In this document: positions 1 to 8,739 of the stretch, piece after piece
Layout of the letters: each line of letters begins with the position of its first letter
How positions within the stretch are numbered: position 1 is the first letter of the stretch
NCBI RefSeq assembly: GCF_022201045.2
Contig: NC_068557.1
Coordinates: 26,885,501-26,949,500, forward strand
Source: Citrus sinensis
Lineage: Eukaryota; Streptophyta; Magnoliopsida; Sapindales; Rutaceae
Direction of reading: 5' to 3'
DNA: 64,000 nucleotides
Notes under the pieces: model-generated
Databases searched by the model: none
Seen by the model: the letters and a program-made list of their open reading frames with translations, nothing else
What the model was told of the DNA's origin: nothing
Position numbers and translations under genes: made by a program

Positions 1-3000
1 ATTGACACTCAACCAATACAGGACTCAAGGAAGCACATCCCCATTATTCTAGGCCGACCTTTCTTGGCAACTGCAGATGCTCATATTCAATGTAGGACCG
101 GAAATATGCAATTGTCCTTCGGCAACATGACTATGGAGCTAAACATCTTCAACATTGCCAAACAACCTCACAGTGCAGATGATGGAATTGTTGATGTGGA
201 TTTAATAGAAATAATAGTTGATAATACTTTTCTTTCAAACCTTAGTGATGATCCTTTACAAACATGTTTAACTCACTTTGGTTTGGATTTTGATATTGAC
301 AGATTGGTCGAAGAGGTCAACGCCCTACTTGACTCAGCACCATCCATGGACACTAATAAATGGAAGTCAAGAGTTGAACAACTAGCACCATCAGAGAAGA
401 AACTCATCCCATCATCAGAATCACCACCGAAACTCGAGCTCAAACCATTGTCCAACACATTGGAATATGCATTTTTGGGAGAAGAAAGCACTCTACCAGT
501 AATCATCTCATCATCCCTAAATGACGAACAAAAAGGTAAGTTGTTGGATGTTTTAAAAGAGCACAAAGGAGCATTAGGATGGACCATAGCAGACATAAAA
601 GGTATAAACCCAGTAGACTGCATGCATTACATTCACCTTGATGAAAATGCTAAATCTACTAGGGAAATGCAACGTCGGTTAAATCCTAATATGAAAGAAG
701 TTGTTAGAACAGAAGTCCTTAAGCTATTAGACGCAGGTATTATTTACCCAATTTCTGATAGTTCATGGGTCAGTCCTGTACAAGTTGTCCCCAAAAAGTC
801 AGGAGTCACAGTAGTTACCAATGCTGATAATGAATTGATACCAACTAGAGTAACTACAGGATGACGTGTATGCATTGATTATAGAAAGTTGAATTCTGTC
901 ACACGTAAAGACCATTTTCCTTTACCATTTATCGATCAAATGCTTGATAGATTAGCAGGCCATGAATTTTATTGCTTTCTAGATGGCTACTCAGGATATA
1001 ATCAGATTCCCATAGCACCAAAAGATCAAGAGAAGACCACTTTCACTTGCCCTTTTGGCACATTTGCATATAAGAGAATGCCATTTGGATTATGTAATGC
1101 ACCTGCTACATTTCAACGATGCATGTTGAGCATTTTTTCTGATATGGTTGAACGATTCCTTGAAGTCTTTATGGATGATTTTTCTGTCTTTGGTGACTCG
1201 TTTGATCAATGTTTACATCATCTAACGCTAGTTCTGCAGAGATGTACCGAGAAGAGCTTAGTCTTAAATTGGGAGAAGTGTCATTTTATGGTAAAACAAG
1301 GTATTGTTCTCGGTCACATCATTTCAAGCAAAGGTATTGAGGTTGACAAAGCCAAGGTGGATCTCATTTCTAATCTTCCTCCACCCAAAACAGTCAGAGA
1401 AGTAAGATCTTTCCTTGGGCATGCTGGTTTCTATAGACGTTTCATTAAAGATTTTAGCAAAGTTTCTAGACCCTTATGCAATTTACTTGCTAAGGATGTA
1501 CCTTTTATCTTTAATGATTCATGTCTTATGGCTTTTGAAAAATTAAAGCAATTGTTGACATCATCACCCATCATTCAGGCCCCAAACTGGAGCTTACCAT
1601 TTGAGCTTATGTGTGATGCATCTGATTATGCAGTAGGAGCAGTTTTAGGACAAAGAGTTGATCGAATTCCTCATGTTATTTACTATGCTAGTATGACATT
1701 GAATGATGCACAGTTGAACTATTCAACTACTGAAAAAGAAATGCTAGCAGTAGTGTTTGCATTGGAAAAATTTCGATCTTATCTCATTGGTTGTAAAATA
1801 ATTATATTCACAGATCATGCTGCTCTTAAATATCTTCTCACAAAGAAAGATGCAAAAGCTAGACTAATTCGTTGGGTGTTACTTTTGCAGGAATTTGACT
1901 TGGAATTCAAAGATAAGAAAGGGACAGAAAATGTTGTGGCGGACCATCTCTCTCGTCTCCATTTTGACACAATTACAGAGCCATTAATATTAAATGAGTC
2001 ATTTCCAAATGAACAATTAATGAGTGTGGAAGTATTACCTTAGTATGCTGATATAGTTAATTATCTTGTTACAGGTAAATTTCCAGAGCATTGGACCAAG
2101 CAAGACAAGGCTAAATTCTTTGCGGAAATAAAGAATTTCTTTTGGGATGACCCATATTTGTTCAAGTATTGTCTAGACCAAATTGTTAGACGATGTGTCC
2201 CTGAAAGTGAAATTCAGAATATCCTTTCATTCTGCCATGAACAAGCTTGTGGAGGCCACTTCAGTGCTAAGAAAACCGCGACTAAAGTTTTACAATGTGG
2301 TTTTTATTGGCCAACTATATTTCGAGATGCTTACACTTTCTGTTCTTCATGTGATAGGTGTCAACGAATGGGGAGCATTACACGAAGGAACATGATGCCA
2401 CTAAATCCAATTTTAGTGGTTGAGATTTTTGACGTATGGGGTATCGACTTCATGGGACCCTTTCCTCCGTCTTTTGGTCATCAATACATATTGGTTGGTG
2501 TTGACTACGTATCGAAATGGGTGGAAGCAATTCCATGCAGAACCAATGATCACAAAGTGGTGATAGGATTTTTGAAAAGCAACATTGTTTCACGCTTTGG
2601 ATTCCCTCGAGCGATAATCAGTGATGGTGGTGCCCACTTTTGTAACAAAGCATTCAAGGCTCTTTTGACAAAGTATTCAATCACACACAAAGTGGCGACC
2701 CCGTATCATCCGCAAACCAGTGGCCAAGTTGAGATCTCCAATCGAGAAATCAAGCACATATTAGAAAAAACGGTGAGGCCAGACGTAAAAGATTGGTCAT
2801 TAAGACTTGATGATGCATTATGGGCATATAGAACGGCTTTCAAGACCCCGATTGGGATGTCACCCTACAGGCTAGTGTATGGAAAAGCTTGCCACCTACC
2901 TGTGGAACTCGAGCATCGTGCATATTGGGCCATCAAGAAATTCAACTTTGACATGCAGCAAGCCAGCTCAGAAAGAAGATTACAGCTGGCAGAACTTGAA

Positions 3001-3336
3001 GAAATTCGCAATGATGCATACGAAAATGCCAAGATTTACAAGCAACGAATGAAAGTCTTCCATGATAAGCAAATTATGAGAAAATCGTTCACTCCAGGTC
3101 AGAAAGTGCTTTTATTCAATTCTCGCTTGCACCTATTCCCAGGTAAGTTACGCTCTCGTTGGTCTGGCCCATTTATTGTACATACTGTTTTTCCACATGG
3201 GGCAATTGAAATTAAGGACCCAAAGAACGGTGTCACGTTTAAAGTTAATGGTCAAAGATTAAAGCCATATCTAGAGTACCAACCACATGGAGAAAACATC
3301 GAAATAAATTTGAGTGACCCACCAAATTTGAATTGA
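1..3336 (+). pseudogene. Ty3/gypsy pol polyprotein (protease end, RT, RNase H, integrase), two in-frame stops
   Basis: One reading frame is open from base 1 to the stop at 3334-3336 except for TGA at 862-864 (just before [10 protein letters not shown], at the start of the RT core) and TAG at 2041-2043 (between RNase H and integrase). Visible parts: ILGRPFLAT from the end of the retropepsin; RT with [14 protein letters not shown] and the catalytic FMDD near 1168-1180; RNase H with [31 protein letters not shown] and [10 protein letters not shown]; integrase zinc finger (HEQACGGHF, then CSSCDRC), and the DDE core ([32 protein letters not shown]). Both stops sit where the family normally has tryptophan, so each is explained by one G-to-A change. 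No frameshift is seen. It would encode replication proteins but cannot be translated through without readthrough. Confidence 0.93.
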
Positions 3337-3463
3337 TTTTTTTTTCTTTTCGTTGATTTGATTTTTCTTTATTTCTTTTTATTATTATTCTTTTGCTAAT
3401 TGAAATTGTTTTTGCATAAGTGTGTTTATTTTACCATTAAGTTTTCTCTTATCATTTTTAATC

Positions 3464-3691
3464 ATGAGTCTCATACTTAGACCGTTCCTCCTGAACATTC
3501 TTAAACCACTTCAACGTGTCAAAACTCATCTCAAAAGGCAGATTCTATTTTGTAAAACACAACGCATTTGGGCTCTACAACCACCAGAGTTAGTAGCCTA
3601 TGTTGAGGGTTTAGAACGCCAACTCAGAGACATTGAGAGAAGTGTTTACGACATCCAGTTGGAGCTTGAGGTAAATTCAATAAGAGGATGA
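3464..3691 (+). CDS. Small hydrophobic/coiled-coil ORF in the env position of the Athila element
   Basis: A 75-codon ORF begins at ATG 3464; the frame is open further upstream but without an ATG. The N-terminal third (MSLILRPFLLNILKPL) is hydrophobic and could be a signal or membrane anchor. The middle is basic (KTHLKRQ) and the last 35 residues (PELVAYVEGLERQLRDIERS region) look like an amphipathic helix or short coiled coil. It lies 127 bp after integrase and 147 bp before the next ORF. I do not recognise a family. Its position and a hydrophobic start recall the env-like ORFs of Athila elements, but it is far shorter than those. It could be a decayed remnant. Confidence 0.4.
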   Translation: MSLILRPFLLNILKPLQRVKTHLKRQILFCKTQRIWALQPPELVAYVEGLERQLRDIERSVYDIQLELEVNSIRG

Positions 3692-3838
3692 TTTTAATTT
3701 TCTTTGTGTGTTTTGATTTGTTTTTCTGTTTGTGTGCTTTAGTTTGTTACCCCGGTGAAGTGGCGGATAACGGTACTCCGTGACAATCAAGTCGGTTACT
3801 TCAGTTTCCCATAATAACTGATATTCTGAGGCGAAGGT

Positions 3839-4396
3839 ATGGATAGAAACGAGATTCTAGCAAAGCTTCACAAGCGATTCCCTTCACTTCCTCAGAATGC
3901 CCTCCTTACAATCTATAAAGCCCGGTCTGAACGCATGCGATTGCTCATGAGGAATAACATACCTGCAGACATTCGTTGGTTAATCGAGGCTAAAGTACGA
4001 TTGGCAGGTGAGTTACCTCCTAAATTTATTGCATACATGCCTGGTTGTGGTAAAGGAAATTACGCAAGAAAACGACGAGCTCGAAGAATTTCTGTTGCTT
4101 GTCACAAGTGTGCCAGAATGAGTTGCGATAAAAACCCATGTTCTTTAGGAATGGTGTCTGATAACAGAGAAGATAAGATTCAATTCATTAGGGATGGCTT
4201 GAATAAGGAGTCATTGGATGATATCCTTTTGTCTCTTGAAACGCATCCCAGTGGATATGTGCAAGGAGCGATTCTCCGGTTATGGCCATTATTCCAGAAA
4301 GAGCATGCACGATATAGTCTCGGGAATCTGACTATAAACGACCCTGTTTGTCAGTTTATAAGAAAACTGGATGGGAAGCCGATCCTCGACCCATAG
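3839..4396 (+). CDS. Basic Cys-cluster protein, resembles flexivirus nucleic-acid-binding proteins
   Basis: Intact 185-codon ORF from ATG 3839 to TAG 4394-4396. Residues 75-83 form a basic run (YARKRRARR), followed by four cysteines at 88, 91, 96 and 101 (C-x2-C-x4-C-x4-C, CHKCARMSCDKNPC), then a segment with charged and aromatic residues (KIQFIRDGLNKE, 113-124). The N-terminal 60 residues look helical. A basic block directly before a compact Cys cluster and a following FI-x-x-G segment is the arrangement of the cysteine-rich nucleic-acid-binding proteins encoded at the 3' end of carlavirus-type and some citrus-infecting alphaflexivirus genomes. In those families the protein binds RNA/DNA zinc-dependently and some members suppress RNA silencing. 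Here the ORF sits in the env position of an LTR retroelement. The similarity is pattern-level only and unverified; an unrelated zinc-binding protein is possible. Confidence 0.5.
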   Translation: MDRNEILAKLHKRFPSLPQNALLTIYKARSERMRLLMRNNIPADIRWLIEAKVRLAGELPPKFIAYMPGCGKGNYARKRRARRISVACHKCARMSCDKNPCSLGMVSDNREDKIQFIRDGLNKESLDDILLSLETHPSGYVQGAILRLWPLFQKEHARYSLGNLTINDPVCQFIRKLDGKPILDP

Positions 4397-4721
4397 AGGG
4401 CGTTCAAGCCGTTTCTGGACGTAAAACCAGAGGAAGATGTGAGCCACAGTCGCAACTACGTGTAAATATCCTTTTACTTTACTGTTATTTTATTTCATTT
4501 CACTGTTGTTTTATTGTTTGCATTATTGTCTTTAATAATTTTATTACTGTTTGCTTTTTCCTTTTTACTGTTTCCTTTTTGACTCGCGAGCCACGTGCTT
4601 TACGCGTTATTTGACACTGACATGTTACCTTATTCACAGCTGTGATCCACTGTCACCAAGATTCTTAAATGTGATTTATCTTTTGTCAAGCACTCACAAA
4701 TTATTTTTGAGAAGTATCACA

Positions 4722-5390
4722 ATGGCAGCTACTCCTAATAGACAATTCAAGAACATTTGTGTGCTTTCTGGATTTACCTATGGCAAACATAAAGAGTTCG
4801 TGGAGGCAGCCATAGATCTTGGTCGAAGCATAGCAGCGAGAAAATTACATTTGGTGTATGGAGGAGGTAACCGAGGGTTATCAAAAATGGTCTCAGAAGC
4901 AGCTTTTATCAGAGGAAGTCAAGTGTTAGGCATCATCCCAAGAGTCCTAAAACCATTGGGCAGTTCGTCTGACTCATCAACTGGAGAAGAGTTAGTCGTC
5001 TCAGGTATGCAAGAAAGAATAACTGAAATGCTTAATCATGCTGATGCTTTTATTTTCCTTCCAGGAGATCTTGCAACACTAGAGGCACTTATGACACTAG
5101 CATCTTGGGCCCATCTGCACATCCACCAGAAACCCATCGGTTTGTTAAATGTCAATAACTTTTATGATGGCTTTATCGCATTTCTTAACCATGCAATAAA
5201 AAACTATTTCATTCCTTCTAATGTGAAAAAACTCTTTATTTGTGCTCACACTGCTAATGAGCTACTTGATATGTTACAAGCTTATAAACCGGAGCCAGAC
5301 CCCTGGACCTTTGTGTTGGAGCGACCAAATAATGATGGTAACAGTAGCCGCAGTAAGAAGTACAAATTAGATTTAACTCTCCGCCTGTAA
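4722..5390 (+). CDS. LOG-like protein (lysine decarboxylase-like Rossmann fold) carried by the retroelement
   Basis: Start chosen at ATG 4722 (MAATPNRQFKNICVLSGF), giving 222 aa, the usual length of plant LOG cytokinin riboside 5'-monophosphate phosphoribohydrolases. The frame is open upstream to 4551, but that part has no LOG similarity. Family marks: nucleotide-binding stretch LVYGGGNRGLSKMVSEA (45-61), GIIPRVL (70-76), the Arg of MQERITEM (96-103), and QKPIGLLNVNNFYDGF (136-151). The signature normally reading PGGxGTxxE is PGDLATLEA at 114-122, so two glycines are changed and the expected catalytic Glu (122) is Ala. True LOGs release active cytokinin base from the nucleotide; this protein probably lacks that activity or has another role. 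It has no introns, unlike host LOG genes, consistent with capture through RNA. Intact despite broken pol. Confidence 0.8.
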   Translation: MAATPNRQFKNICVLSGFTYGKHKEFVEAAIDLGRSIAARKLHLVYGGGNRGLSKMVSEAAFIRGSQVLGIIPRVLKPLGSSSDSSTGEELVVSGMQERITEMLNHADAFIFLPGDLATLEALMTLASWAHLHIHQKPIGLLNVNNFYDGFIAFLNHAIKNYFIPSNVKKLFICAHTANELLDMLQAYKPEPDPWTFVLERPNNDGNSSRSKKYKLDLTLRL

Positions 5391-7280
5391 ATATTTTCTT
5401 CTGTGTTGCACCACCTAGGTGATGTCTTCTAAACTCTACTTCTTTCCTTTAAAACATTGAGGACAATGTTTCGTTCTGGTTGGGGGGAGGGAATAGTCGA
5501 CAATTGTGGAATCTTGGTTAAGTTTTTACTGATTTTTTGTTGTAGAAACTAACTGTTGCTAACATTTTATGTTGAAGATGGCTGAATATGGAGTGTAGTG
5601 CCTCTAGAAACGCATCTTCATCGTTTAAAAAAAAAAAAAAAAAAAACATGTTTTCTTCATCTTTCTCCTTTATAAATATGTAGTTTCAAATTTTTGAGTC
5701 GAAGATGGCTGAATATGGAGTGTAGTGCCTCTAGAAACGCATATTCTTAGTTAAAAAAAAAAAAATTTCTTTTTCTAATTAATTTTTCTACATCATTTTC
5801 ACATTTCTGCATGCATATTTTCCTTTCATGTTTAGAATAGGTTGGGGGGTAGAATGTTGTTTAAAAAAAAAAATTGTGTTATTTGTTTTAACATTGGATG
5901 ACATGATTAATTTCAAATTTTAGTATTTGTATTATCTTTGGTCTTAAGTGATGTTACGCTATGTTTGCTACTTTACATGTTGATGTCGGAGACAAATATG
6001 AGTTGCTTGAAGGAATGAACATGTCATAAATAAGTGCCAAGTGAGTAGTTGAGCCTATCATTTTCTTGGAGAGTAACCCTTTTGCCCATTCTCTATACAG
6101 CTTAGCAGTTTATTATTTTATACACGATCTCTAGATTTCTTTTAAGTTAACCCTTTAAAAAAAAATATGGTAAAATTAAAAAAAAAAGAAAAAAATGCGT
6201 GTTGCTACATTGGGATGCCCATTTAACTAGTAGATATGGATAATTATTTAGAGCCCTAAAAAACGATGGAAGGGCCATCTTTGATCCGTTTGAGCCTTTC
6301 TAGCCATCCCTGTTATTAAATATCCATAGTTACCCCTTCTGAGCTTTTAAAAAAAAAAAAAAAATATTTTCTTTGTCAACTTATCATCTTGACCCACTCC
6401 GATTTGGAGTATTACCCAATGTCTTTTAAGTTCCATCACCTATTTATGTTTGAGAAAATGTAAATAATTATGTTGTTCAGTGAAGTTATGCCAAATAAAA
6501 GCAAAAAAAAAAATAATAAATAAATAAATAAAAACAAAAACAAAAACAAAAGTTGTTGTTTCAAAAGAATAAAATAACAATAATAGGTGAAATCTACCTT
6601 GCAACTTCAAAAAAAAAAAAAAATTATTTCTGTATTTTTCTCAAACATACACTTTGTTTTCCTTATTTCCTTTCTTTGTTAGCCATATCCCTAGCCTACA
6701 TTACGTCCTAATAAAAGTCCTTCTTGATTTTAGGGAACTATAGTTTGAAGTAGAAGCTAGTTATATGGGCTAAAAAGATGTAGTGATGCATAATAAAAAA
6801 AAATGGTAAAATTAATAAATAAAAAAAAGATAAATAAAGTGGGTTGACTAACATTTTATTTGACTTGAGATCGTATTATTTCTAAGCTGAGGGCATATTT
6901 ATTTCATCTTGGTGAGAGCATGTAATATCATTTCTTTATTATTTTCTCTCTCAATTACCATTCATTGGAGTGACTATGTTTATTGGGTTTTAATTTCTTT
7001 GTGAGAGTGTCACTACTTCCAGTGAGATTTTGGGGTTTGACATGTCATTCTTGAAAGTAGCTATAACAAAGTCTACTGGGCTAATTCATGTGGATGGTTG
7101 ATGTGGGTGTGATGTTGCTTTAGACTGGAGATAATGCTTATACTTTTATTTGATTGCTATCATTAATCTGATTGAATAAACACGAGTGTTTCTAAAAAAA
7201 AAAAAAAAAAAATCATTTTGAATTTGAATTTTGTTTTCGCTTTATTTGCTAGGGACTAGCAATAAGCTGGTTGGGGGGTG
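5391..7280 (+). other. Non-coding 3' region of the Athila element
   Basis: No ORF of note. The stretch has many A-runs and two copies of a 42-bp direct repeat. Three nearly identical G-rich blocks (GGTTGGGGGG) occur at 5478-5490, 5840-5850 and 7269-7280. The last abuts the LTR and is the likely polypurine tract for plus-strand priming. The phrase TTGAGGACAATG just before the first block is commonly seen after the last ORF of Athila/Tat elements. A pair of inverted phrases around 6230-6330 (gatatggataa / ttaaatatccata) could fold. Confidence 0.6.
5574..5742 (+). repeat. 42-bp direct repeat in the retroelement 3' region, each copy able to form a hairpin
   Basis: Copies at 5574-5615 and 5701-5742 are identical over 42 bp and 127 bp apart, each followed by an A-run. 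In the first copy GAAGATG at the start pairs with CATCTTC after the repeat. In the second the same start is present but the end reads CATATTC, which pairs instead with the internal GAATATG. Function unknown. Confidence 0.7.
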
Positions 7281-7560
7281 TGTTGAGTGTTAGAAAATGC
7301 ATATTTATAAAGGAGAAAACCGTCATTTTACATTTCAAGTCTTACTAACAACCCTTACTTTTATGTATTTAACCTTCTTGTGATTTAATTACATGTGTTT
7401 TATTTTAATTAAGTATTTTATGTATTTTAGGGGCATTATAGTCATTTCACAATAAAGGAGAGATCAGACGGCAAAACGGACATCACTTTTGAACTCAGGA
7501 CGGTCGAAAACCTTAGGAGGAGCATAAAAGGAAAAATGGCACTATTCATATGTACGGTAC

Positions 7561-7930
7561 TATTCACGTGTACGGTACTAACTACGTTACTGTTCACAAC
7601 ACTGTTCACATAGACGGATCGATGACGTGGCATTGACCGATGATGTGGCATTGACTGATGAGGTGTCACGATCATGTTGGGCTAAAATTCTTATGTACTG
7701 TTGATGGTGACGTGGCAGCATATCAGTGGATGAAAAATCTCGCGTACGGTACATGCATCACACATGATTATTTTCAACCAAACCGTGTTACTGTTCATCC
7801 GAGTCAAACCGTGTTACTGTTTATCCGCGTGGTCAAACCGTGGACTGTTGACTGATGACGTGGCGCAATCCTGAACGTCCAAACTGTTTTTAATCCGATG
7901 GCCATGATTTACTCCATGTATCTATAAAAA
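7561..7930 (+). promoter_or_regulatory. LTR U3 promoter: TGACGTGGC and TTGAC cluster plus TATA box
   Basis: TGACGTGGC occurs exactly at 7623-7631, 7708-7716 and 7856-7864, with a near copy TGATGTGGCA at 7641-7650. TTGAC occurs at 7633, 7651 and 7848, immediately next to these. TATAAAAA is at 7923-7930. TGACG/ACGT cores are known bZIP (TGA/G-box) sites and TTGAC[C/T] is the WRKY W-box, so the U3 looks like a stress- or defence-responsive promoter. Short repeats of the type ACTGTTCA (7530-7850) also occur. Response is inferred, not shown. Confidence 0.6.
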
Positions 7931-8024
7931 GGGGGCCTCCCCCCCCTAATTGGATATCTCTGAATCCATTTTTGGGATCCATTTTCTGTAATTCCCTCTC
8001 CATCTTGTATTTTCTTTGTATTTT

Positions 8025-8030
8025 AATAAA
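8025..8030 (+). terminator. Polyadenylation signal AATAAA in the LTR
   Basis: AATAAA lies about 95 bp after the TATA box, in a T-rich context, as expected for the end of R in an LTR. Confidence 0.5.
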
Positions 8031-8640
8031 TTCTCATTTTGCCCCTAGTTCAATTATGAGTAGCTAATTTCCTTTCAAGCTTGGGTTGAAGGTGAAGTCT
8101 CAACATGTGTCATGGGCTTTATTTGGTAAATTTATTTTCTTTTCCCCTCTAGTTTTTGTGGATGATTTGACTTATCGTCGACAAATAATACTGATCTTGT
8201 CTAGATACCGCCTTGGTTACACCGGTTCTCTAGTATAAGGTTATTATTATTTGGCACGATAAGCCCTTAGCACCATATTGATTAGAGCGTGGTTCATGAG
8301 GTGTGGATTCCCCCGTCATGATTTAATTGGCATTAATACGGATTATTTAGCCCATGATACATGTTGATACGGATCCAGATACCCAAGTACGTCATTTCAA
8401 TAGATTTCGCTTCAACTTATTCTCGCCATTGCAATTCCAATTTTAGAATTTATTATCGCAATTTCAATTCCAATTTTAGGATAACTTAAATCACTTCCAC
8501 CATAATTTCAACCACCCATTTTGCAAAATTAATTCTATACACAATTAAAATCCTCCTCCTCGTGGGATCGACACTCGTCACCATTGATCTACACTACAAT
8601 AGATTCGTGCGCTTGCAAGTACATTAAAATTTGCACAACA

Positions 8641-8739
8641 GCGAGCACCCCCCCGGACGCAACTGGTGATACCCCTCATGCACCTGAGGAGGTCCAGCCA
8701 ACCGATGCTGCTCGGCATACTGATCCGCCATCTTCTTGA
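8641..8739 (+). pseudogene. C-terminal tail of an antisense ORF of the Tat element, cut by the Athila insertion
   Basis: From the first base after the Athila LTR, 32 codons are open to TGA at 8737-8739 (starts ASTPPDATGDTPHAPEEV; rich in Pro, Asp and Glu), followed by an AT-rich 3'UTR-like stretch. It is antisense to gag-pol of the surrounding element. Low-complexity acidic/proline tails of this kind end the antisense transposase- or plant-mobile-domain-like ORFs of Tat elements; that identification is an inference. Confidence 0.4.

What the first reader, a model, noticed from the sequence alone, without database searches (positions are those of the whole stretch)
3337..5390. Athila retroelement carrying a virus-like nucleic-acid-binding ORF and a LOG-like ORF in the env position
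Between integrase and the 3' LTR lie three ORFs that are not the usual env-like gene: a small hydrophobic ORF, a basic Cys-cluster ORF and a LOG-fold ORF. The two larger ones are fully open although pol has two stops. A retroelement that combines a possible viral RNA-binding protein with a host cytokinin-pathway-type protein would be a new kind of accessory cassette, perhaps acting against silencing and on host growth or nucleotide signalling.
Basis: partly seen in the sequence, partly recalled or inferred. Interest (0 to 1): 0.85.

Follow-up and report, generated by a model that had tools for sequence, protein, structure and literature searches.

The report
Retroelement carries virus-like and pseudo-LOG genes
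An abundant jumping element in a citrus-like genome carries three extra genes kept intact by natural selection: one resembles a nucleic-acid-binding protein of plant RNA viruses, and another looks like a hormone-activating enzyme whose active site has been lost.

Summary
Three sense ORFs lie between integrase and 3' LTR of a young LTR element (5-bp target duplication; LTRs 98.9% identical). A 31-nt core of the cassette occurs 1,312 times in the genome. All three ORFs show purifying selection: within the family piN/piS is 0.26 (NABP) and 0.21 (LOG) against 0.79-3.4 in shifted frames; between subfamilies omega is 0.33 (ORF A), 0.24 and 0.22. ORF2 relatives occur in Citrus, Xanthoceras, Acer and Populus; many pass the Pfam cut-off for flexivirus nucleic-acid-binding proteins, the window copy does not. 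ORF3 has the LOG fold, but the catalytic glutamate and most substrate residues are replaced in 26 of 26 aligned proteins, so a cytokinin-activating role is unlikely. It ends in a conserved LxLxL (EAR-type) peptide, suggesting TOPLESS recruitment; binding is untested. LOG-bearing citrus Gypsy elements are already in print (PMC9289625). The virus-like partner, dead site, tail and selection evidence were not found in my searches. Mechanism is inferred.

The parts
889..3336 (+). pol, part: RT/RNase H (889-2043) and integrase (2158-3336); this copy has stops at 862-864 and 2041-2043
   Evidence: Pfam RVT_1, RT_RNaseH, rve, Integrase_H2C2; integrase piN/piS 0.10 among 30 copies
3464..3691 (+). ORF A, 75 aa, no known domain
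   Evidence: 51-53% aa identity and same length in three other-subfamily loci; omega 0.33 (95% range 0.14-0.61) to subfamily 2; 50 relatives with E <= 0.01
3839..4396 (+). NABP-like ORF, 185 aa: basic stretch followed by CX2CX4CX4C
   Evidence: piN/piS 0.26 in 30 LOG-chosen loci; omega 0.24
4348..4463 (+). stretch across the NABP stop conserved between subfamilies at nucleotide level, ending at a donor-like GTAAAT (4462)
   Evidence: 96-98% identity to subfamily 2 in its two 50-base bins against 42-90% elsewhere; synonymous changes 1 of 11.7 against 63.1 of 108.2 sites; but not less variable than the neighbouring bins among close copies (pi 0.016)
4632..4639 (+). acceptor-like ATT[CT]ACAG before the LOG ORF
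   Evidence: same in 4 of 4 aligned loci; use not shown
4722..5390 (+). LOG-fold ORF, 222 aa, with degenerate active site
   Evidence: PF03641 E 3.7e-28, TIGR00730, AtLOG3 structure 2a33 E 3e-45; residues; piN/piS 0.21 in 29 NABP-chosen loci; omega 0.22
5367..5387 (+). C-terminal LDLTLRL, EAR-type LxLxL motif
   Evidence: 61 of 62 intact LOG records, 86 of 120 listed relatives within the last 14 residues, 1.6% in shuffles
7269..7278 (+). polypurine-like tract GGTTGGGGGG before the 3' LTR
   Evidence: read from the sequence
7281..8640 (+). 3' LTR; followed by the target-site copy GCGAG at 8641-8645
   Evidence: 98.9% identity to the 5' LTR at G000:C2:26881699-26883058, GCGAG on both sides

Best explanation
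This is the accessory cassette of a high-copy, Athila-type plant LTR retroelement: three genes in the env position kept working as part of the element. ORF2 is a basic zinc-finger nucleic-acid-binding protein that shares a domain of about 85 residues with the NABP/CRP of carla-, allexi- and mandariviruses. ORF3 descends from a host LOG by way of a spliced RNA and is now a pseudoenzyme: the substrate site is largely dismantled, while the fold and a C-terminal EAR-type LxLxL tail are kept. Most likely working: spliced subgenomic RNAs (donor just after the PBS, acceptors before the ORFs) express the proteins; the NABP binds element RNA or host nucleic acid, and the LOG-fold protein docks TOPLESS-type corepressors, so that together they bend host transcription or silencing in favour of the element. 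Shown: cassette, recurrence, selection, domain similarity, residue loss, motif. Inferred: capture from RNA, splicing, corepressor binding, effect on silencing.
For: Recurrence and order. Purifying selection within and between subfamilies. NABP similarity carried by the family: 52 and 48 of 54 aligned members match Carla_C4 and Viral_NABP at E <= 1, ten tested relatives exceed the Viral_NABP cut-off (all ten were already so marked), 8 shuffles give no such match. LOG residues lost yet the ORF constrained. LDLTLRL tail kept while the rest of the tail diverges to 61% identity. C-terminal EAR motif of the HaRxL21 effector binds TPL (PMC7446885 passages). Donor-like GAG|GTAAGT after the PBS and acceptor-like site before LOG in 4 of 4 loci.
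Against: The window NABP itself is under both Pfam cut-offs, and a PF05515 search of the genome found nothing at E <= 0.001 (its control rang nowhere). Fold searches with the NABP model are not significant. LxLxL is a short, common motif and no binding was tested. The acceptor-like site before the NABP is not at the same place in the other subfamilies. No spliced-and-reinserted copy was found (NABP junction only). No expression data were available. The LOG model failed.
Confidence: 0.42

Rival explanations
1. Host-free role: the three proteins serve the element's own cycle (RNA chaperone or packaging by the NABP, particle or movement function of ORF A and the LOG-fold protein, as proposed for env-like genes); the LxLxL tail is incidental.
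For: Position of env-like genes; NABP relatives are widespread and multi-copy; conserved RNA-level stretch next to the NABP.
Against: The LOG scaffold and the LxLxL tail suggest a host partner; the heptapeptide is kept while its surroundings diverge.
Confidence: 0.27
2. Dominant-negative LOG: the pseudoenzyme forms mixed dimers with host LOGs, whose active pocket lies at the dimer interface, and lowers cytokinin activation.
For: LOG dimers share the pocket (PMC4979012 passages); Arg99 (23 of 26), Glu121 (25 of 26) and Trp129 (26 of 26) are kept.
Against: Only about 40% identity to the host LOG exons; interface not modelled (one search failed).
Confidence: 0.16
3. Active cytokinin-activating LOG carried by the element.
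For: LOG fold; public records name relatives cytokinin riboside 5'-monophosphate phosphoribohydrolase.
Against: Catalytic Glu replaced in 26 of 26 aligned proteins and in all 62 intact LOG records; PGG[YF]GT at only 7 places genome-wide, one of them shown to be a host LOG gene with introns.
Confidence: 0.03
4. Passenger sequence: the ORFs were captured and only look conserved because the element is young.
For: Insertion about 0.4 My old at a recalled rate; copies were chosen by similarity.
Against: Shifted-frame controls and crossed samples; omega 0.22-0.33 between subfamilies at dS 0.7-1.0.
Confidence: 0.03

Closest known systems
Citrus Gypsy elements with a YgdH/LOG domain (PMC9289625, section 12 read; it cites Steinbauerova 2011, not held, whose abstract I recall as naming two Athila-like elements similar to LOGL4)
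   Same: Very probably the same lineage: LOG-type domain in citrus Gypsy elements
   Different: No statement there, in what I read, on lost active site, EAR tail, virus-type partner ORF or selection
NABP/CRP of carla-, allexi- and mandariviruses (PF05515, PF01623; PMC12172455 abstract, section 5 and passages)
   Same: Basic NLS-like stretch plus zinc-finger-type Cys cluster; about 85 residues align to the C-terminal half of the PF05515 profile
   Different: In a retroelement, not a plus-strand RNA virus; spacing CX2CX4CX3-4C; an additional conserved C-terminal half; the window copy is under the cut-off
LONELY GUY phosphoribohydrolases (TIGR00730/PF03641)
   Same: Fold and length
   Different: PGGxGTxxE and most substrate residues lost; EAR-type tail gained
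C-terminal EAR-motif effectors such as HaRxL21 (PMC7446885 passages)
   Same: Short C-terminal LxLxL on an unrelated scaffold
   Different: Encoded by an endogenous retroelement; binding not tested
Orchid Gypsy elements with an AlkB-type RNA demethylase (PMC9289625 abstract and section 12)
   Same: Plant Gypsy element with a captured, fixed accessory domain
   Different: Other domain, enzymatically active there

Membership tests
Athila-lineage LTR retrotransposon | Two LTRs with target-site duplication | tested here: met
   LTRs 98.9% identical, GCGAG on both sides
Athila-lineage LTR retrotransposon | PBS complementary to tRNA-Asp | tested here: inconclusive
   TGGCGCCGTTGCCGGGGA after the 5' LTR; that this is the tRNA-Asp type is recalled, not searched
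Athila-lineage LTR retrotransposon | Position in a reverse transcriptase tree | not tested
   no tree made
LONELY GUY enzyme | LOG fold by sequence | tested here: met
LONELY GUY enzyme | Catalytic Arg and Glu, PGGxGTxxE motif | tested here: not met
   Arg kept in 23 of 26, Glu replaced in 26 of 26; residues from PMC4979012, placed by the motif and the AtLOG3 alignment
Viral NABP (PF05515) | Score over the curated cut-off | tested here: inconclusive
   window protein 13.1 bits against 23: not met; ten relatives, all pre-marked, score 26.2-34.1: met
Viral NABP (PF05515) | Basic stretch followed by Cys cluster | tested here: met
EAR-motif repressor | LxLxL or DLNxxP motif | tested here: met
   LDLTLRL in 61 of 62 intact LOG records
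EAR-motif repressor | Binding to the CTLH domain of TOPLESS | not testable with these tools
   needs an interaction assay
Retroviral env-like gene | Transmembrane segment | not tested
   no TM predictor was run

The most novel reading that the evidence does not exclude
An endogenous plant retroelement runs a virus-style host-control module: a flexivirus-type zinc-finger NABP that acts on nucleic acids or silencing RNAs, plus a LOG-derived pseudoenzyme turned into a TOPLESS-recruiting adaptor. The NABP gene has been exchanged between retroelements and RNA viruses, so that flexivirus CRP genes and this ORF share a common source.
Probability: 0.22. Interest if true: 0.88.

Novelty: new variant of a known kind. 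Interest (0 to 1): 0.62.

Why it matters
What the extra ORFs of plant LTR elements do is mostly unknown; the 2020 review PMC7264820 (first of three parts read) calls an env-like role controversial and says that the origin and function of the antisense ones are not known. Here one cassette gives directly testable proteins: a virus-family nucleic-acid-binding protein, and a hormone-enzyme fold stripped of its chemistry but fitted with a corepressor-type peptide. If confirmed, retroelements and RNA viruses would use the same tools on plant hosts, and where flexiviruses got their CRP gene becomes a testable question. It also warns that some records named as cytokinin enzymes in Citrus (many of the 120 listed) are retroelement pseudoenzymes.

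Tried and rejected
AlphaFold of the LOG ORF on 26 close sequences failed (mean pLDDT 35.9) and was not used. The NABP model is good only for about residues 1-50 (mean 61.9). Fold searches gave nothing significant: 11 BFVD matches, all with E >= 1.3, two of the named ones being flexivirus entries (Fig latent virus 1 silencing suppressor, sweet potato chlorotic fleck virus NABP), and one PDB match at E 7.8. Scans of viral contigs with both alignments found no relative. RNA folding of the NABP leader and of the conserved stretch is no better than in shuffles (z 0.43 and -0.20); no Rfam match. Copies that had lost introns: 0 for the PBS-NABP junction; the LOG junction was not searched. A spliced NABP-LOG fusion, which public gene models suggest (P0170, P0194, P0203), was rejected: those models join at different places, and in subfamily 2 a stop stands a few codons before the LOG start. 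An overlapping frame in the conserved stretch was considered; the few changes fit neither frame well (by eye).

Limits. A sample chosen by integrase alone was planned but that search did not complete. I used crossed samples (LOG in NABP-chosen loci and the reverse); these are still the 30 best-scoring of 150 listed copies, so intact fractions are upper values. The 68 loci repeat some places (the window is L001, L009 and L039); counts of 62 records include such repeats. Between-subfamily omega rests on one locus per subfamily, picked as stop-free. Genomes of other plants were not at hand, so whether the Populus, Acer and Xanthoceras NABP relatives lie in such elements is not shown. A one-host name only (Citrus) appears among the ORF A relatives.

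Full report
What was checked. The window lies in a 299.7-Mb assembly of 11 contigs. The best database matches of the LOG protein are 98-100% identical records of Citrus x changshan-huyou, so I take the host to be Citrus or a near relative; this is inference. The three ORFs are present as described, between integrase and the 3' LTR. The LTRs are at C2:26881699-26883058 and window 7281-8640; the alignment has 1361 columns with 15 mismatches, its first column being a shared flanking base. GCGAG stands on both sides. At a recalled rate of 1.3e-8 per site and year the insertion is about 0.4 My old, 0.85 My at half that rate. A PBS-like TGGCGCCGTTGCCGGGGA follows the 5' LTR and is followed at once by GAG|GTAAGT, a donor-like site.

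Recurrence. The best 150 NABP places and the best 150 LOG places were listed; 149 of 150 in each list have no stop. Both lists are capped and ranked by similarity, which overstates intactness. A 31-nt core between the two ORFs occurs 644 + 668 = 1,312 times with up to 3 mismatches, against 0 for the reversed control. In 30 NABP-chosen loci LOG is covered over 90% in 28 (none found in one, 38% in another) and intact in 24; in 30 LOG-chosen loci NABP is covered over 90% in 30 and intact in 29. Two loci of a second subfamily carry NABP (69% identity) and LOG (74%) in the same order, both open. A search with P0093 lists further NABP places of other subfamilies, a mix of open and stop-bearing copies.

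Selection. Within the family, piN/piS is 0.26 for NABP in LOG-chosen loci (30), 0.21 for LOG in NABP-chosen loci (29) and 0.10 for integrase (30); the other two frames of NABP and LOG give 0.79-3.45 over all sets. ORF A is weaker within the family, 0.56-0.65. Between the window and subfamily 2, omega is 0.24 for NABP (dS 0.94), 0.22 for LOG (dS 0.71) and 0.33 for ORF A (dS 1.04), with codon-bootstrap 95% ranges 0.15-0.39, 0.14-0.32 and 0.14-0.61.

NABP. The window protein alone matches Carla_C4 (E 0.007, 16.7 bits against a cut-off of 20.9) and Viral_NABP (E 0.095, 13.1 against 23), both under the cut-offs. A PF05515 search of the genome found nothing at E <= 0.001, and its controls rang nowhere. 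The family carries the signal: 417 relatives at E <= 10, the best 120 listed, with Citrus, Xanthoceras, Acer and Populus among the named sources. Of 54 aligned sequences 52 match Carla_C4 (best 1.7e-7) and 48 Viral_NABP (best 2.3e-8) at E <= 1; the next family matches 8. Ten relatives that one search already marked with PF05515 score 26.2-34.1 bits over profile positions 93-207 of 227; seven of the ten also pass the Carla_C4 cut-off. Eight shuffled versions gave no such match. The Cys cluster is CX2CX4CX3-4C after a KKRRAKRL-like stretch. Mandarivirus and allexivirus CRPs share NLS and zinc-finger motifs (PMC12172455 section 5); CYVCV CRP suppressed local silencing (abstract); CVB p12 is described there as a weak silencing suppressor and transcription factor that causes hyperplasia (passage). 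Fold searches were not significant.

LOG. The fold assignment is secure. A host LOG gene (L074) matches in separate exon pieces and has PGGYGTLEE, whereas the element ORF has no intron; capture from a spliced RNA is the simplest reading. In CgLOG, Arg99 and Glu122 are the proposed catalytic residues; Met96, His97, Lys100, Glu125, Trp129, Ser19 and residues of PGGxGTxxE hold the substrate (PMC4979012 passages). In 26 aligned element proteins (window included) Arg99 is kept in 23, Thr119 in 26, Glu121 in 25, Trp129 in 26; His97, Lys100, Gly116, Gly118, Glu122 and Glu125 are replaced in 26 of 26 each. The places were found by motif and by the AtLOG3 alignment; the Ser19 place (Phe in 26) is uncertain by one residue. 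The motif reads PGDLATLEA in 59 of 62 intact records, and none of the 62 has the Glu. PGG[YF]GT occurs at 7 places in the genome (reversed control 2), one of them shown to be a host LOG gene; genes with an intron inside the motif would be missed. ORF3 is thus very unlikely to activate cytokinins, yet it is constrained.

The tail. The last 28 residues are 61% identical between the window and subfamily 2, but the final LDLTLRL is the same in the window, subfamily 2 and a group-1 locus, and in 61 of 62 intact records. Of the 120 listed relatives 86 have LxLxL within the last 14 residues; some of the others end early. Shuffling the protein gives this in 1.6%. LxLxL is one of two EAR forms (PMC6479872, abstract in the listing; PMC7446885 passages), and the C-terminal LMLTL of HaRxL21 binds the TPL CTLH domain. 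Here the match is to a short motif; binding is a prediction.

The conserved stretch. Window 4348-4463 covers the last 17 NABP codons, the stop and about 66 nt. Its two 50-base bins are 98% and 96% identical to subfamily 2 and 82-92% to two group-1 loci, where other bins against subfamily 2 run 42-90%. Synonymous changes are 1 of 11.7 sites against 63.1 of 108.2 in the rest of NABP (Fisher p 0.0013 on rounded counts). Against this, among close copies its diversity (pi 0.016) is not lower than in the NABP bins just before it (0.007-0.011), it folds no better than shuffles and has no Rfam match. It ends at a GTAAAT, and a T-rich stretch leads to an ATT[CT]ACAG before LOG in 4 of 4 loci. A signal at RNA level, perhaps for splicing or packaging, is my guess.

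Literature. PMC9289625 section 12 reports the YgdH/LOG domain in C. sinensis and C. clementina Gypsy elements, and in P. trichocarpa without its filter, citing Steinbauerova 2011, which is not held. Searches for a virus-type partner and for extra ORFs, with passages of PMC3136472, PMC2714080, PMC11728184 and PMC11963269, showed no report of it; the library holds open-licence papers only, so this is no proof of novelty.

Verdict. A real, selected, high-copy accessory cassette. The LOG part is known; the flexivirus-type partner, the lost active site, the EAR-type tail, the small third gene and the conserved stretch were not found in print by these searches. The mechanism is inference to be tested.

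Noticed in passing
window 4348-4463: Stretch across the NABP stop that is far more alike between subfamilies than its surroundings, at synonymous sites too; no fold or Rfam match.
   Followed up: partly
window 3692-3838: Non-coding leader before the NABP varies less among copies (pi 0.0155) than two other spacers (0.026, 0.039) and keeps GGATAACGGTACTC in the window, subfamily 2 and one group-1 locus, with one change in the other.
   Followed up: partly
window 5478-5487, 5840-5849, 7269-7278: GGTTGGGGGG occurs three times between LOG and the 3' LTR; the last is the likely polypurine tract, the others look like internal ones (read).
   Followed up: no
window 5565-5638 and 5692-5765: Direct repeat of 74 nt, 91% alike, downstream of LOG.
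   Followed up: no
G000, e.g. C2:2333060 and 2344205, C8:20386337 and 20397488: At least five pairs of NABP places lie 11,124-11,167 bases apart on one strand (hand count), which suggests tandem elements sharing an LTR.
   Followed up: no
P0121-P0240: Public Citrus x changshan-huyou records of this element's ORF carry the UniRef name of a cytokinin-activating enzyme, and some gene models fuse NABP and LOG (P0170, P0194, P0203).
   Followed up: partly
G000:C2 just after the 5' LTR (L070): GAG|GTAAGT, a donor-like site, directly follows the primer binding site.
   Followed up: no
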